DNA from: Gammaproteobacteria bacterium
GTDB taxonomy: Bacteria > Pseudomonadota > Gammaproteobacteria > Pseudomonadales > Azotimanducaceae
Direction: 5' to 3'
Length of the DNA: 63,110 nucleotides
Assembly: GCA_026708185.1 (NCBI GenBank)
Contig: JAPOVK010000064.1
Location: 1 to 63,110, forward strand
The notes beneath the pieces are model-generated. The model saw only the letters and a program-made list of their open reading frames with translations. It did no database searches and was not told the origin of the DNA. The position numbers were made by a program, and so were the translations under genes. Each line of letters begins with the position of its first letter. The stretch's first letter is position 1. This document shows, in pieces, positions 7,952-63,110 of the stretch.

Positions 7952-10054
7952 ATGGCTCGCAGCACTCCCATCGGCCGCTATCGGAACATCGGCATCGTCG
8001 CCCACGTCGACGCTGGGAAGACGACGACGACCGAACGTGTGCTGTTCTACACGGGCCTGTCGCACAAGATCGGTGAGGTCCACGACGGCGCGGCCGTCAT
8101 GGACTGGATGGAACAGGAGCAGGAGCGGGGGATCACCATCACGTCGGCGGCGACCACGTGCTTCTGGCAAGGCATGGATCGGCAGTTCGACGAGCACCGG
8201 ATCAACATCATCGATACGCCGGGTCACGTCGACTTCACGATCGAGGTCGAGCGTTCGCTGCGCGTCCTGGACGGGGCGGTGGTCGTGTTCTGCGGCACGT
8301 CGGGGGTCGAACCGCAATCCGAAACCGTGTGGCGGCAGGCGAATCGCTACGAGGTGCCGCGCGTCGTCTTCGTCAACAAGATGGACCGGGCCGGTGCGGA
8401 CTTTCTCCGGGTCGTCGAGCAGATCCACGAGCGCTTGGGTTCGACGCCGGTTCCCATCCAACTGGCTATCGGCGCCGAGGAGGACTTCCGGGGGGTGATC
8501 GACCTCGTGCGTATGAAGGCGATCTACTGGAACGAAGACGATCAGGGCTTGAGTTACGAGACCGCCGAAATCCCGGATGAGCTACGTGCGGACGCTGAGC
8601 ACTGGCGCGAAGAGCTGGTCGAGGCCGCGGCGGAGGCCACCGAGGAGTTGATGGAGAAATACCTCGAGGACGCCGAACTGTCCGAGGCCGAGATTCGCGA
8701 AGGCATCCGCGTGCGGACGTTGACCAACGAGATCGTGCCGGCCCTGTGCGGCTCGGCGTTTAAAAACAAGGGTGTTCAGGCGATGCTGGATGCGGTCATC
8801 GACTACCTGCCCGCCCCGACCGAGGTGAAATCCATCGAGGGCGTGCTCGACGACGGCGTTACCCAAGCCGAGCGCCACTCCGACGATGAGGAACCGTTCG
8901 CCGCGTTGGCGTTCAAGATCGCCACCGATCCGTACGTGGGCACGCTGACGTTCTTCCGCGTGTACTCGGGCGTGCTCAGTTCCGGCGACCAGGTCTACAA
9001 CGCGGTGCGTCAGCGCCGGGAAAGGATCGGGCGCATGGTGCAGATGCACTCGAATGCGCGCAACGAGATCAAGGAGGTGCGAGCCGGCGACATCGCGGCC
9101 GCAATCGGCCTGAAGGACACCACGACCGGCGACACGCTCTGCGACAACGATGCGGTGATCACCCTCGAGCGCATGGACTTCCCCGATCCAGTGATCTCCG
9201 TGGCGGTCGAACCCAAGTCGGTCGCTGACCAAGAAAAGATGTCCGTCGCTCTTGGCAAGCTTGCCCAGGAAGACCCGTCGTTTTCGGTGGAGACGGACGA
9301 AGAGTCGGGGCAGACGATCATCTCAGGCATGGGCGAGCTGCATCTCGACGTGCTCGTGGACCGCATGCGGCGCGAATTCGGCGTGGAGGCCAACATCGGC
9401 AAGCCGCAAGTGGCCTACCGGGAGACCATCCGCCAGACCGTCGAGCACGAGGCCAAGTACATCCGCCAGACCGGCGGCCGCGGCCAATACGGCCACATCT
9501 GGGTCAAGCTCGAGCCGACCTACGGCGAAGAGGACGCGGCGAACTTCGAGTTCGTAGACGCGATCGTCGGCGGCGTCGTGCCGCGCGAGTACATACCGGC
9601 CGTGGCCAAGGGTCTCGAGGAGCAGATGGACAACGGCGTGATCGCGGGCTATCCCTTGATCAACGTCCGGGCAACCCTCTACGACGGCTCGTTCCACGAG
9701 GTGGACTCCAGCGAGATGGCGTTCAAGATCGCGGGCTCGATGGCCATGCGCGAGGGTGCGCAACGCGCGAGCCCGGTTCTCCTCGAGCCGGTGATGGCCG
9801 TGGAGGTCGTGACCCCGGAGGACTACATGGGAGACGTCGTCGGGGACTTGAGCCGCCGGCGCGGGATGATCGGCGGAATGGACGAGAATCCGGCGGGCAA
9901 GATCGTGCGTGCATCGGTACCCCTCGCCGAGATGTTCGGCTACTCGACGGATCTGCGCTCGGCAACCCAGGGGCGAGCGACCTTCACCATGGAGTTCGAG
10001 CGCTATGCGGAGGTACCGAGCGGCATCGCCGAAGGGATCATCAAGAAGTCGTGA
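7952..10054 (+). CDS. fusA: Translation elongation factor G
   Basis: GTPase that drives ribosomal translocation and, with RRF, ribosome recycling; 700 residues. The P-loop [13 protein letters not shown] is at about residues 17-29, switch II is DTPGHVDF, and the base-specificity motif is NKMDR. Domain IV contains the conserved [12 protein letters not shown] segment and the C-terminal domain ends with [12 protein letters not shown]. It lies 103 bp after rpsG with a GAGG ribosome site. The usual next gene of the operon, tufA, is missing. Confidence 0.98.
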
Positions 10055-12332: not shown

Positions 12333-13163
12333 ATGCCTGTCGTGAAAGCCAAACCGACATCGCCTGGACGACGTTTCGTCGTCAAGGTCGTCGACCCGAC
12401 GCTGCACAAGGGTACGCCGTACAAGCCCCTGTTGGAGCCGCAGAGCCAAACCGGAGGTCGCAATGGTGCCGGCCGCATCACCACGCGGCACCGCGGCGGC
12501 GGCCACAAGCAGCACTTCCGCAAGATCGATTTCCGGCGCAACAAGGACGGTATCAAGGCGATCGTGGCGCGCCTGGAGTACGACCCGAATCGGAGCGCTA
12601 ACATCGCGTTGCTCAAGTACGCCGACGGCGAGTACCGCTACATCGTCGCGCCTCGCGGGGTCTCCGCCGGCCAAGAACTGCTGTCGGGGTCCACGGCGCC
12701 GATCCGTCCGGGCAACGCCATGCCGCTGCGCAATGTGCCGGTCGGAAGCGTCGTGCATTGCGTGGAACTGAAGCCCGGCAAGGGCGCGCAGCTTGCGCGC
12801 AGCGCTGGCACGTCGTGCCAATTGGTCGCCCGGGAGGGCGCGTACGCGACCTTGCGGCTGCGATCCGGCGAGATGCGGCGCGTGCCGGTCGAGTGCCGGG
12901 CGACGCTCGGCGAGGTCGGCAACAGCGAGCACAGCCTGCGTTCACTCGGCAAGGCCGGCGCCAAGCGTTGGCGTGGGGTGCGGCCGACCGTGCGCGGCGT
13001 GGCCATGAACCCCGTCGACCATCCACACGGTGGCGGCGAGGGCAAGTCCTCCGGAGGCCGACATCCGGTGTCGCCGACGGGCCTGCCGACCAAGGGGTAC
13101 AGGACGCGCAAGAACAAGCGTACGGACAAGTTGATCATCCGTCGTCGTGGCGGCCGGCGCTAA
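12333..13163 (+). CDS. rplB: 50S ribosomal protein L2
   Basis: Primary rRNA-binding protein needed for subunit association and peptidyl transfer; 276 residues. It shows the N-terminal [18 protein letters not shown] block, the OB/SH3-like core, and the invariant [12 protein letters not shown] loop near residues 227-238, whose first His (E. coli H229) is functionally important. The C-terminus [14 protein letters not shown] is normal. It lies 10 bp after rplW. Confidence 0.98.
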
Positions 13164-14553: not shown

Positions 14554-14967
14554 ATGCTGCAACCGAAACGAACGAAATTCAGAAAGCTGCAGAAGAGCCG
14601 CAACCGCGGGCTGGCGAACCGTGGCAACCGCGTCAGTTTCGGCGAGTTCGGACTCAAGGCGGTCGGCCGTGGTCGCCTGACAGCGCGTCAGATCGAGGCC
14701 GGTCGGCGTGCGATGACGCGTCACGTGAGACGGGGCGGCAAGGTGTGGATCCGGGTGTTCCCGGACAAGCCGATCACGAAAAAACCCCTCGAAGTCCGCC
14801 AAGGCAAAGGCAAAGGCAACGTGGAGTACTGGGTTGCGCTGATACAGCCCGGTCGCGTGATCTATGAAATGGAAGGCGTGCCGGAAGCGGATGCCCGGCG
14901 CGCCCTGACCTTGGCGGCGGCGAAGCTGCCGTTTCCGACGGTGTTCGTCAGGCGCAGCCTGCTGTGA
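14554..14967 (+). CDS. rplP: 50S ribosomal protein L16
   Basis: Late-assembling protein near the A-site tRNA elbow; 137 residues, standard length. [19 protein letters not shown] and the loop [24 protein letters not shown] are canonical; the Arg in IRVFPDK is the one hydroxylated by YcfD-type oxygenases in some bacteria. 32 bp after rpsC. Confidence 0.97.
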
Positions 14968-14983
14968 GTCCAGAGAGCTTCAA

Positions 14984-15178
14984 ATGAACGCGGAGCAACT
15001 GAACGAGCTTAGGGAAAAGACGGCAGACGAACTGCACGAGGAGCTCCTGCGGCTGCGTAAGGAACAGTTCAACTTGCGTATGCAGCGCGCGAGCGAACAG
15101 TTGCCGCAAACCCATCTCATCACCGAGACGCGGCGCGACATCGCGCGGGTGAAGACGCTGATCCGGGAGAAGACTTGA
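14984..15178 (+). CDS. rpmC: 50S ribosomal protein L29
   Basis: Two-helix protein of 64 residues near the tunnel exit and part of the SRP docking platform. Shows the family pattern [19 protein letters not shown] followed by a second helix ending in LIREKT. Ends two bases before the rpsQ ATG. Confidence 0.95.
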
Positions 15179-15180
15179 CG

Positions 15181-15588
15181 ATGCCTGATGAGAAAGAGCC
15201 CGACGATCAGGAGCCCTCAGCCGGGGAGCGCGAGGGGCCTGCCCCTCGCACGGGAGAGCCCTCAGCCGGGGAGCGCGAGGGGTCTGCCCCTCGCACGGGA
15301 GAGCCCTCAGCCGGGGAGCGCGAGGGGCCCCAGCAGCCGCGGCCGTCGCGGGCGATGACCGGGGTCGTCAAGTCGAGCAAGGCGGACAAGACCATCTGCG
15401 TGCACGTCGAGCGCCGGATCAAGCATCCCGTGTACGGCAAGTTCATCCGGCGCTCCACCAAGCTGCACGCGCACGACGAAGGCAACGACTGCCGCGAGGG
15501 CGACGTCGTGACCATTGTCGAGACGCGGCCGATTTCCAAGACGAAGGCTTGGCGACTCGATCGGATTCTCGAGCGGGCCGGGTCGTGA
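15181..15588 (+). CDS. rpsQ: 30S ribosomal protein S17 with a repeat-derived N-terminal extension
   Basis: Binds 16S rRNA of the 5' domain. The protein has 135 residues, against about 84 in relatives. The OB-fold core starts near residue 58 ([20 protein letters not shown]) and runs to the end with [16 protein letters not shown] and [11 protein letters not shown] intact. Residues 11-49 are two full 15-residue repeats, [15 protein letters not shown] and the variant [15 protein letters not shown], plus nine residues of a third. They are encoded by a 45-bp hairpin-forming repeat also seen at the window's right end. The frame is open throughout. Start taken as ATG 15181; a TTG at 15175 overlapping rpmC is the alternative. 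An internal start at the Met near residue 59 would give the normal-size protein and cannot be excluded. Confidence 0.93.
15211..15329 (+). repeat. 45-bp tandem hairpin repeat inside rpsQ (2.6 units)
   Basis: Unit 1 is 15211-15255, unit 2 is 15256-15300, and a partial third is 15301-15329. Units 1 and 2 differ by one base (C at 15238, T at 15283). Each full unit contains the inverted repeat GCGAGGGG...CCCCTCGC with a 4-nt loop (15230-15237 with 15242-15249 in unit 1); the one substitution falls in the loop, so the hairpin is preserved. Five of the six reading frames are free of stop codons. Another unit lies at 63057-63101. Confidence 0.95.
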
Positions 15589-15614
15589 AGGCCCGGGCTA
15601 GGAAGACACAGTAA

Positions 15615-15983
15615 ATGATTCAAGCCGAAACCATGCTCGACATCGCCGACAACAGCGGCGCACGACGCGTGCAGTGCATCAAGGTGCTCGGCGGATCGCA
15701 TCGGCGCTACGCCGGCATCGGCGACGTCGTCAAGGTCACCGTCAAGGAGGCCATTCCACGCGGGCGCGTGCGAAAGGGCCAGGTGATGAATGCAGTCGTT
15801 GTGCGTACGAAGCGTGGCGTGCGCAGAGCGGATGGCTCGCTGATCCGCTTCGACGAGAACGCGGCCGTACTGTTGACCGGTGCCTTGCAACCCGTGGGAA
15901 CGCGGATCTTCGGGCCCGTGACGCGCGAACTGCGAACGGAGAACTTCATGCGCATCATCTCGCTTGCGCCGGAAGTGCTTTAG
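15615..15983 (+). CDS. rplN: 50S ribosomal protein L14
   Basis: Subunit-interface protein of 122 residues and binding target of the silencing factor RsfS, which is also encoded in this window. [20 protein letters not shown] and [13 protein letters not shown] are canonical. First gene of the former spc operon; no separate promoter is obvious in the 26-bp gap after rpsQ. Confidence 0.97.
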
Positions 15984-63056: not shown

Positions 63057-63110
63057 GAGCCCTCAGCCGGGGAGCGCGAGGGGCCTGCCCCTCGCAAGGA
63101 AGAGCCCTCA
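63057..63110 (+). repeat. 45-bp hairpin repeat upstream of ggt (continues past window)
   Basis: A full unit at 63057-63101 matches the rpsQ units apart from two changes near its 3' end (CACGGGA replaced by CAAGGAA); the next unit begins at 63102 and is cut by the window edge after 9 bases. The hairpin GCGAGGGG...CCCCTCGC is intact. It lies outside any recognised gene, 25 bp upstream of the longest possible ggt frame. Confidence 0.93.

What the first reader, a model, noticed from the sequence alone, without database searches (positions are those of the whole stretch)
15211..15329. Hairpin-forming 45-bp repeat inserted in frame in the ribosomal gene rpsQ
S17 here carries about 55 extra N-terminal residues, mostly the 15-residue repeat [15 protein letters not shown]. 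The DNA unit is an exact multiple of three, open in five frames, and its single base difference between copies lies in the hairpin loop, so RNA structure is conserved. Palindromic elements that enter genes in frame are known (for example in Rickettsia), but a tandem array inside a universal ribosomal protein gene is remarkable. It may be a small non-autonomous element tolerated because S17's N-terminus is exposed, or a post-insertion expansion by slippage.
Basis: partly seen in the sequence, partly recalled or inferred. Interest (0 to 1): 0.88.

Follow-up and report, generated by a model that had tools for sequence, protein, structure and literature searches.

The report
Codon-sized hairpin repeat inside core genes
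A 45-letter hairpin-forming DNA repeat has spread through this bacterium's genome and those of its relatives, and because it usually adds a whole number of amino acids (mostly fifteen) it can sit inside many working genes, the ribosomal protein S17 gene being one of them.

Summary
Window 15211-15329 holds 2.6 copies of a 45-bp unit, in frame, in the only rpsQ gene found in the genome. It is one site of a dispersed family: 152 exact hairpin cores in this 5.13-Mb genome, 180 copies in 91 clusters in the part I fetched. 17 further clusters lie in frame inside other genes, among them Lon (5 copies), trigger factor, RsmH, a pseudouridine synthase, ZipA, DsbD, GspJ. A close relative (very probably MAG COS4_bin_44) lacks the insert at 12 of these 17 sites; the net difference is a multiple of three in all 12. 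Seven readable inserts without coding signal were also mostly 45 bp, so the length is largely the element's own. Arrays grow by local duplication. The repeat did not create S17's tail: all 15 congeners read have an extended tail, 14 of them of other sequence. The nearest known things are intragenic REPs and Rickettsia palindromic elements; this is a new variant of that kind, without the REP tags. The mobilising enzyme is not shown; a RAYT-like transposase is only a candidate.

The parts
15181..15588 (+). rpsQ (30S ribosomal protein S17), only copy found in the genome; TTG 15175 is an alternative start
   Evidence: NCBIfam TIGR03635 and PRK05610 over cut-off; one match in G000
15165..15172 (+). 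GGGAGAAG, Shine-Dalgarno-like, 8 bases before ATG 15181, inside the 3' end of rpmC
   Evidence: sequence; the same 8 bases stand at this place in 6 of the 7 congeners whose upstream DNA I printed, 7 of the 8 bases in the seventh
15211..15255 (+). repeat unit 1, read as [15 protein letters not shown]
15256..15300 (+). repeat unit 2, read as [15 protein letters not shown]; one C/T difference in the loop
15301..15329 (+). truncated third unit (29 of 45 bases), read as EPSAGEREG; the relative has a longer third unit here with a second hairpin
15230..15249 (.). hairpin core GCGAGGGGCCTGCCCCTCGC of unit 1 (8-bp stem, 4-base loop)
15275..15294 (.). hairpin core of unit 2
15349..15585 (+). conserved S17 domain (residue 57 to the end), without repeat
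   Evidence: alignment A1, first invariant residue R57; model pLDDT 76-95 by ten-residue block from residue 51 on, 47-60 in residues 1-50
63058..63110 (+). second site of the element in the window: one unit and the start of another, cut by the contig end

Best explanation
The array is one site of a genus-level family of short, non-autonomous, palindromic repeats. SHOWN: copies are dispersed; where a close relative has an empty site, a single copy corresponds to a block of 42 or 45 bp in genes, and of 39 to about 55 bp (mostly 45) elsewhere; copies at one site are near-identical to each other and unlike those elsewhere, and copy number differs between relatives at some sites, so arrays grow by local tandem duplication. 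SHOWN by codon statistics and domain matches: copies lie in frame inside conserved genes, in sense orientation in all 27 coding clusters found, mostly read as EPSAGEREG(P/L)APRxx. INFERRED: the differences are gains rather than losses, because the host domains are known without such inserts; the element enters purine-rich sites just before GA or GAG; since GAG is mostly an in-frame Glu codon here, the unit usually adds 15 codons in one reading frame, while the commonest antisense frame carries TGA and is lost; selection removes other harmful insertions. In rpsQ it sits in a tail, predicted disordered, that the genus has without it. How duplication proceeds (slippage or unequal exchange) and which enzyme moves the unit are unknown; a RAYT-like Y1 transposase is the best candidate.
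For: Dispersal: 152 exact cores in G000, control 0; 180 copies in 91 clusters in the fetched part, up to 4 mismatches. Empty sites: of the 17 coding clusters, 12 are empty in G007 with net differences of 42 bp (5), 45 bp (6) and 219 bp (Lon), 12 of 12 multiples of three; two differ in copy number (45 and 90 bp), two have the same number of copies, one (trigger factor) was not resolved. Without coding signal, 24 sites were queried, 19 aligned and 7 readable: 45, 45, 45, 45, 42, 39 and about 55. Unit spacing is 45 in 75 of 89 intervals. Local growth: loop plus linker identity 0.935 within 22 arrays against 0.62 between, 2000 shuffles, p 0.0005. Frame: 19 clusters passed the coding test, 2 without a recognisable repeat peptide were dropped, of the 17 left 14 are F1, 2 F2, 1 F3, 0 antisense; a second set of 41 clusters, mainly from G007 and G010, gave 10 coding, 9 F1, 1 F2, 0 antisense. 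Phase null from 335 predicted genes, tests. Host genes by HMM. S17 tails. Tail model.
Against: No transposase gene was found near a copy: 13 of the 19 listed Y1 places were examined and none holds the element, nor do two wider stretches in G000. A target duplication could not be proved, since the element itself starts with GAG and the flanks have diverged; some inserts replaced a few bases. Coding was called by codon statistics on 120-base flanks, so some calls may be wrong and some real cases were missed. Arrays in genes keep multiples of three in 18 of 18 intervals against 58 of 71 elsewhere, only a tendency (p 0.06). Single-strand folding is no better than shuffles. Nothing shows that the tail is translated or kept in the ribosome.
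Confidence: 0.85

Rival explanations
1. An ordinary tandem repeat that arose by slippage inside a low-complexity S17 tail, without any mobile element.
For: Other congeners have unrelated tandem repeats in the same tail (AEPPA repeats in L113, VSDEQPDE in L125). Within-array copies are nearly identical.
Against: The same 45-bp unit with the same hairpin stands in 91 clusters in the fetched part of the genome, and the relative has empty sites. Slippage may explain the array's growth, not its arrival.
Confidence: 0.05
2. A REP family in the strict sense, moved by a RAYT (REP-associated tyrosine transposase) encoded in the genome.
For: Hairpin unit of REP size; Y1 transposase matches in 10 of 16 genomes of the genus, one of the two in G000 hitting NCBIfam REP_Tyr_transpos below its cut-off (41.5 of 80 bits). 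Copy number and number of Y1 matches correlate (Spearman 0.60, p 0.015, n 16, no correction for kinship).
Against: No GTAG or CGTC tag; the element is absent from the 13 Y1 loci examined; the second Y1 protein of G000 has no NCBIfam match; [quoted passage not shown] two genomes with 5 and 6 copies (G013, G011) have no Y1 match.
Confidence: 0.3
3. The repeat is a functional peptide module kept by selection (for example a disordered spacer or a binding motif), spread because it is useful.
For: One peptide frame dominates (23 of 27 coding clusters over; three of the 27 are second members of orthologous pairs). Two sites keep the same copy number in both relatives (RsmH, DsbD).
Against: Much of the bias follows from target phase and the antisense stop: expected F1 share 0.53 and sense share 0.77, observed 14 and 17 of 17, p 0.013 and 0.012. 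The amino acid at the loop varies (for example P, L, S, R, H), and the hosts have nothing obvious in common.
Confidence: 0.1
4. Assembly artefact: repeats wrongly placed in rpsQ by short-read assembly.
For: At least 14 of 130 contig ends lie in such arrays (positions; not every contig end was looked at), so the assembler did struggle with them.
Against: Array and unique flanks lie well inside the contig, and an independent assembly of a relative has units at the same place with its own differences.
Confidence: 0.02

Closest known systems
Intragenic REPs of the GTAG and CGTC superfamilies (PMC3733652, 2013; passages and the whole of section 15 read)
   Same: Short hairpin repeats, dispersed, some inside known genes, also grouped; clusters of repeats encoding 43 to 82 amino acids are reported for Thauera and R. 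conorii.
   Different: No GTAG or CGTC tag here; head-to-tail arrays of a 45-bp unit; hosts here include Lon, trigger factor, RsmH, ZipA and S17. Section 15 names no ribosomal protein gene; its supplementary list of hosts was not readable here.
Rickettsia palindromic elements and Wolbachia palindromic elements (Ogata and others; not read, seen as cited in passages of PMC2996958 and PMC3733652)
   Different: Those are from intracellular Alphaproteobacteria and, as recalled, longer and mostly single; here GC-rich, tandem, and in a gammaproteobacterial genus. Sequences were not compared.
PARCEL, palindromic amphipathic repeat coding elements (PMC2996958, 2010; abstract and passages read)
   Same: Tandem, palindromic, protein-coding repeats spread within genomes.
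   Different: PARCELs are 25-residue amphipathic domains in ORFs that are generally not recognisable housekeeping genes; here 15 mostly hydrophilic residues inside core genes.
Dispersed prokaryotic satellites (PMC6749651, 2019; passages read)
   Same: Tandem arrays of one family at many sites.
   Different: That survey reports transposed non-coding satellite families only in Leptospira interrogans and Methanocella conradii; here the same family is in and between genes.

Membership tests
REP (GTAG or CGTC superfamily) | palindromic unit of 20-40 bp in many dispersed copies | tested here: met
   20-base core with 8-bp stem, 152 exact copies; conserved stretch about 38 bp
REP (GTAG or CGTC superfamily) | GTAG or CGTC tag at one end of the hairpin | tested here: not met
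   neither occurs on either strand of the unit consensus (read by eye)
REP (GTAG or CGTC superfamily) | for GTAG REPs: RAYT gene flanked by the repeat, or by terminal inverted repeats | tested here: not met
   flanked by the repeat: 0 of 13 Y1 loci (of 19 listed) and 0 of 2 wider G000 stretches; terminal inverted repeats were not tested (one search failed on coordinates)
REP (GTAG or CGTC superfamily) | mostly between genes | tested here: inconclusive
   17 of 91 clusters pass a strict test for lying in frame in genes; the rest are between genes, at contig ends or undecided
Rickettsia palindromic elements | palindromic insertion in frame inside otherwise conserved genes, absent from relatives | tested here: met
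   12 of 17 coding clusters empty in G007, all multiples of three
Rickettsia palindromic elements | sequence of a described RPE family | not tested
   no RPE sequence was compared; Rfam on 14900-15700 gave no match at E 1, which is no test of RPEs
PARCEL | 25-residue tandem motif with conserved hydrophobic residues | tested here: not met
   unit is 15 residues, [15 protein letters not shown], without large hydrophobic residues
MITE | terminal inverted repeats shared with an autonomous element, and target duplication | tested here: inconclusive
   no autonomous partner found, but only Y1 transposases were searched; duplication cannot be told from the element's own GAG

The most novel reading that the evidence does not exclude
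A selfish DNA unit fitted to life inside genes: it is an exact number of codons long, enters at in-frame Glu codons, reads as a soluble disordered peptide in that frame, and is removed by its own stop codon when inserted the other way round in the commonest phase; it then multiplies in place, so that a whole bacterial genus carries lineage-specific, length-varying inserts in its chaperones, proteases, rRNA-modifying enzymes and a ribosomal protein.
Probability: 0.3. Interest if true: 0.8.

Novelty: new variant of a known kind. Interest (0 to 1): 0.62.

Why it matters
Intragenic palindromes are mostly discussed from Rickettsia and from scattered REPs. Here the process is visible with empty sites, intermediate steps and varying copy numbers between two relatives 91-94% alike over the ribosomal region, in core genes including a ribosomal protein. 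That makes open questions directly testable: what fixes the length at 15 codons, which enzyme moves such units, how growing inserts are tolerated in Lon, RsmH or the ribosome, and how new disordered protein segments arise. It also warns that automatic start-site correction or trimming could hide such inserts, and that assemblies break in them.

Tried and rejected
Rejected: plain slippage without a mobile element; assembly artefact; the idea that the repeat made the S17 tail; strict REP membership (tag and link to a RAYT gene not met); PARCEL membership. Led nowhere: Rfam on 14900-15700 (no match at E 1); fold energies against shuffles (no better than shuffles); inverted-repeat search in the relative's rpsQ (none at its minimum length); papers holding S17, N-terminal extension and tandem repeat together (0), papers with the label COS4 (none), REPs with in-frame insertion and tandem repeats (listing), sponge symbionts with palindromic tandem repeats (listing). 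The class-wide sample (369 genomes) had the exact 20-mer in the own genome only, but held no congener, so it shows only that the unit is not general in the class.

Slips found on checking: the array-level Fisher table was entered with 29 'other' arrays where one search gives 33; it was not significant and is not used. Notes of mine are loose in places: the first says 13 of 15 congeners have the core, one search gives 12 of 15; trigger-factor, PilQ and some other names in them were read by eye before the HMM search. In one search the reversed control is not fair, because part of that pattern reads the same backwards; its counts are not used as evidence. Two sites of the first flank query (C1:7013, C2:73176) had no usable match in G007, and twelve of the 19 aligned sites without coding signal were shared, rearranged or aligned on one side only.

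Full report
What was claimed and what is there. It is there: two full units and 29 bases of a third at 15211-15329, inside the only S17 gene found in the genome (assembly about 97% complete). The S17 family match starts at residue 57 of 135. A model built on 31 S17 sequences shows a confident five-strand core and a tail of low confidence (pLDDT 47-60 by block in residues 1-50), so the array (residues 11-50) lies in a tail that is predicted to be disordered.

The S17 tail does not depend on the repeat. I read S17 in 15 congeners. All have an N-terminal extension, of roughly 20 to 105 residues and by eye of low complexity; in the seven whose upstream DNA I printed it is read from the end of rpmC. 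Only one of the 15, G007, has the palindromic unit there. G007 is very probably the MAG COS4_bin_44, because its contig C24 has the same length, 121747, as record JAPOYV010000010.1. Two others have unrelated tandem repeats in the tail (L113, L125). So the tail tolerates expansion in general. In G007 two full units are followed by a third into which a further GC-rich hairpin has been built; the truncated third unit of the window is at the same place.

A dispersed family. The core GCGAGGGGNNNGCCCCTCGC stands 152 times in the own genome and 0 times in the reversed control. It is present in 12 of 15 congeners (0 to 66 copies) and in 1 of the 42 genomes searched outside the genus, G021, where a run of four units of the same 45-bp build, with its own loop and linker, was seen (L141). 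In a class-wide sample of 369 genomes without congeners only the own genome has the exact 20-mer CAGCCGGGGAGCGCGAGGGG. I fetched 54 stretches of G000 around listed places (the tool lists about 100 places, so not all copies) and 2 around Y1 genes; with the window they hold 180 copies in 91 clusters at up to 4 mismatches, of which a few weak ones are chance. All clusters with several copies are head to tail. Of 89 spacings 75 are 45 bp, the rest 42 to 47. At least 14 of 130 contig ends lie in such arrays, so true array lengths are not known there.

In frame inside genes. With a codon-usage score trained on long ORFs of the fetched DNA I asked for each cluster whether a frame is open through the repeat and coding on both sides (120 bases each). 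19 clusters passed; two without a recognisable repeat peptide were dropped as chance, leaving 17; 28 of the 91 had no open frame or lay at a contig edge. Pfam or NCBIfam names the host ORF in all 17: Lon with five units between the AAA lid and the protease domain; trigger factor with four after its C-terminal domain; RsmH with three inside the methyltransferase; a pseudouridine synthase with three between S4 and catalytic domains; ZipA with four before its FtsZ-binding domain; DsbD with three; single units in GspJ, PAPS reductase, an MnmC-like protein, an MDR reductase, an esterase, an Omp85-like protein, RseB, two Uma2 proteins and two ankyrin proteins. An RNase E/G gene has a unit too but fell just under the codon cut on one side. 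S17 was not counted in the 17, because its left flank is the end of rpmC.

Empty sites. I searched the flanks of 24 sites in G007 and aligned 22. Of the 17 coding clusters, 12 are empty there, with net differences of 42 bp (5), 45 bp (6) or 219 bp (Lon), all multiples of three; the pseudouridine synthase and ZipA differ by 45 and 90 bp; RsmH and DsbD have the same number of units; trigger factor was not resolved. To see whether selection alone makes the lengths, I did the same for 24 sites without coding signal: 19 were aligned and 7 gave a readable single-unit empty site, with 45, 45, 45 and 45 (two of these messy), 42, 39 and about 55 bp. The length of 45 bp is therefore largely a property of the element. 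In arrays inside genes 18 of 18 spacings are 45; elsewhere 58 of 71 are multiples of three (p 0.06).

Orientation and frame. Of the 17 clusters all are in sense direction: 14 read EPSAGEREG(P/L)APR (F1), two SPQPGSARG, one ALSRGARG. In a second set (41 clusters in 35 stretches of G007 and G010 and four single loci of G004, G008, G014 and G021) 10 were coding: 9 F1, 1 F2, none antisense; three of these are the same sites as in G000. Part of this is mechanical. Sites look like RR before GAG, and in 335 predicted genes 39% of RRGAG lie in sense phase 0 and 27% in antisense phase 0; the latter frame of the unit contains TGA. Given that, 53% F1 and 77% sense are expected; the observed 14 and 17 of 17 leave modest evidence for further selection (p 0.013 and 0.012; with the 7 further independent clusters, 20 and 24 of 24, p 0.002 each).

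How arrays grow. The variable loop and linker are 93.5% identical within arrays and 62% between arrays (22 arrays, shuffles p 0.0005), and copy number differs between relatives at two resolved sites. So a unit arrives and is then duplicated locally.

What moves it. Y1 transposase matches occur in 10 of 16 genomes of the genus, and their number correlates with copy number (rho 0.60, p 0.015). None of the 13 loci examined (of 19 listed) has the element beside it; the better of the two in G000 reaches 41.5 bits of a cut-off of 80 for REP transposases and the other no match; two genomes with five and six copies have no Y1 match. It remains a candidate. Other classes of transposase were not searched.

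Comparison with the known. In-frame palindromes in genes are known from Rickettsia and Wolbachia (as cited in PMC2996958) and as intragenic REPs in several species, with clusters that encode up to 82 residues (PMC3733652, section 15). This family works like them. It is not a GTAG or CGTC REP by tag, and no link to a RAYT gene was found. What sets it apart is the codon-sized unit, head-to-tail growth, the number of core genes hit and the presence in a ribosomal protein gene. I saw no paper that describes it in seven searches of one open-licence library without preprints, which is weak evidence of absence.

Noticed in passing
L031:3100-3165 (G007 rpsQ); similar peptides near G000:C7:1354 and C34:210951: A longer subtype of the element with a second GC-rich hairpin (CCCGCCGCGCAAGCGGCGGG) built into the unit, read as EPSAGERPAAQAAGRGPAPREN; similar peptides appear at other sites.
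   Followed up: partly
contig ends of G000: starts of C1, C9, C13, C16, C30, C33, C49, C58, C64; ends of C2, C16, C23, C28 (window 63058-63110), C43: Assembly contigs break inside arrays of the element, so the longest arrays are probably missing from the assembly.
   Followed up: partly
L113 and L125 (S17 of congeners): S17 tails of other species carry unrelated tandem repeats (AEPPA and VSDEQPDE), so this tail expands by more than one route.
   Followed up: no
L115 and L119 (S17 of congeners): Some congeners also have a C-terminal S17 tail with repeats of the type EEPSAAPEKE.
   Followed up: no
L141 (G021, another genus of the family): Four tandem copies of the same kind of 45-bp unit, with a different linker, outside the genus: old inheritance or transfer.
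   Followed up: no
L145 and L146 (G000 C23:71445, C13:69089): The flanks of the two Y1 (RAYT-like) transposase genes seem to share another repeat (by eye, translated as MDKAWTT), unrelated to the 45-bp unit.
   Followed up: no
window 9427-9487 and 12853-12893: Two short imperfect tandem repeats (periods 33 and 21) elsewhere in the window.
   Followed up: no
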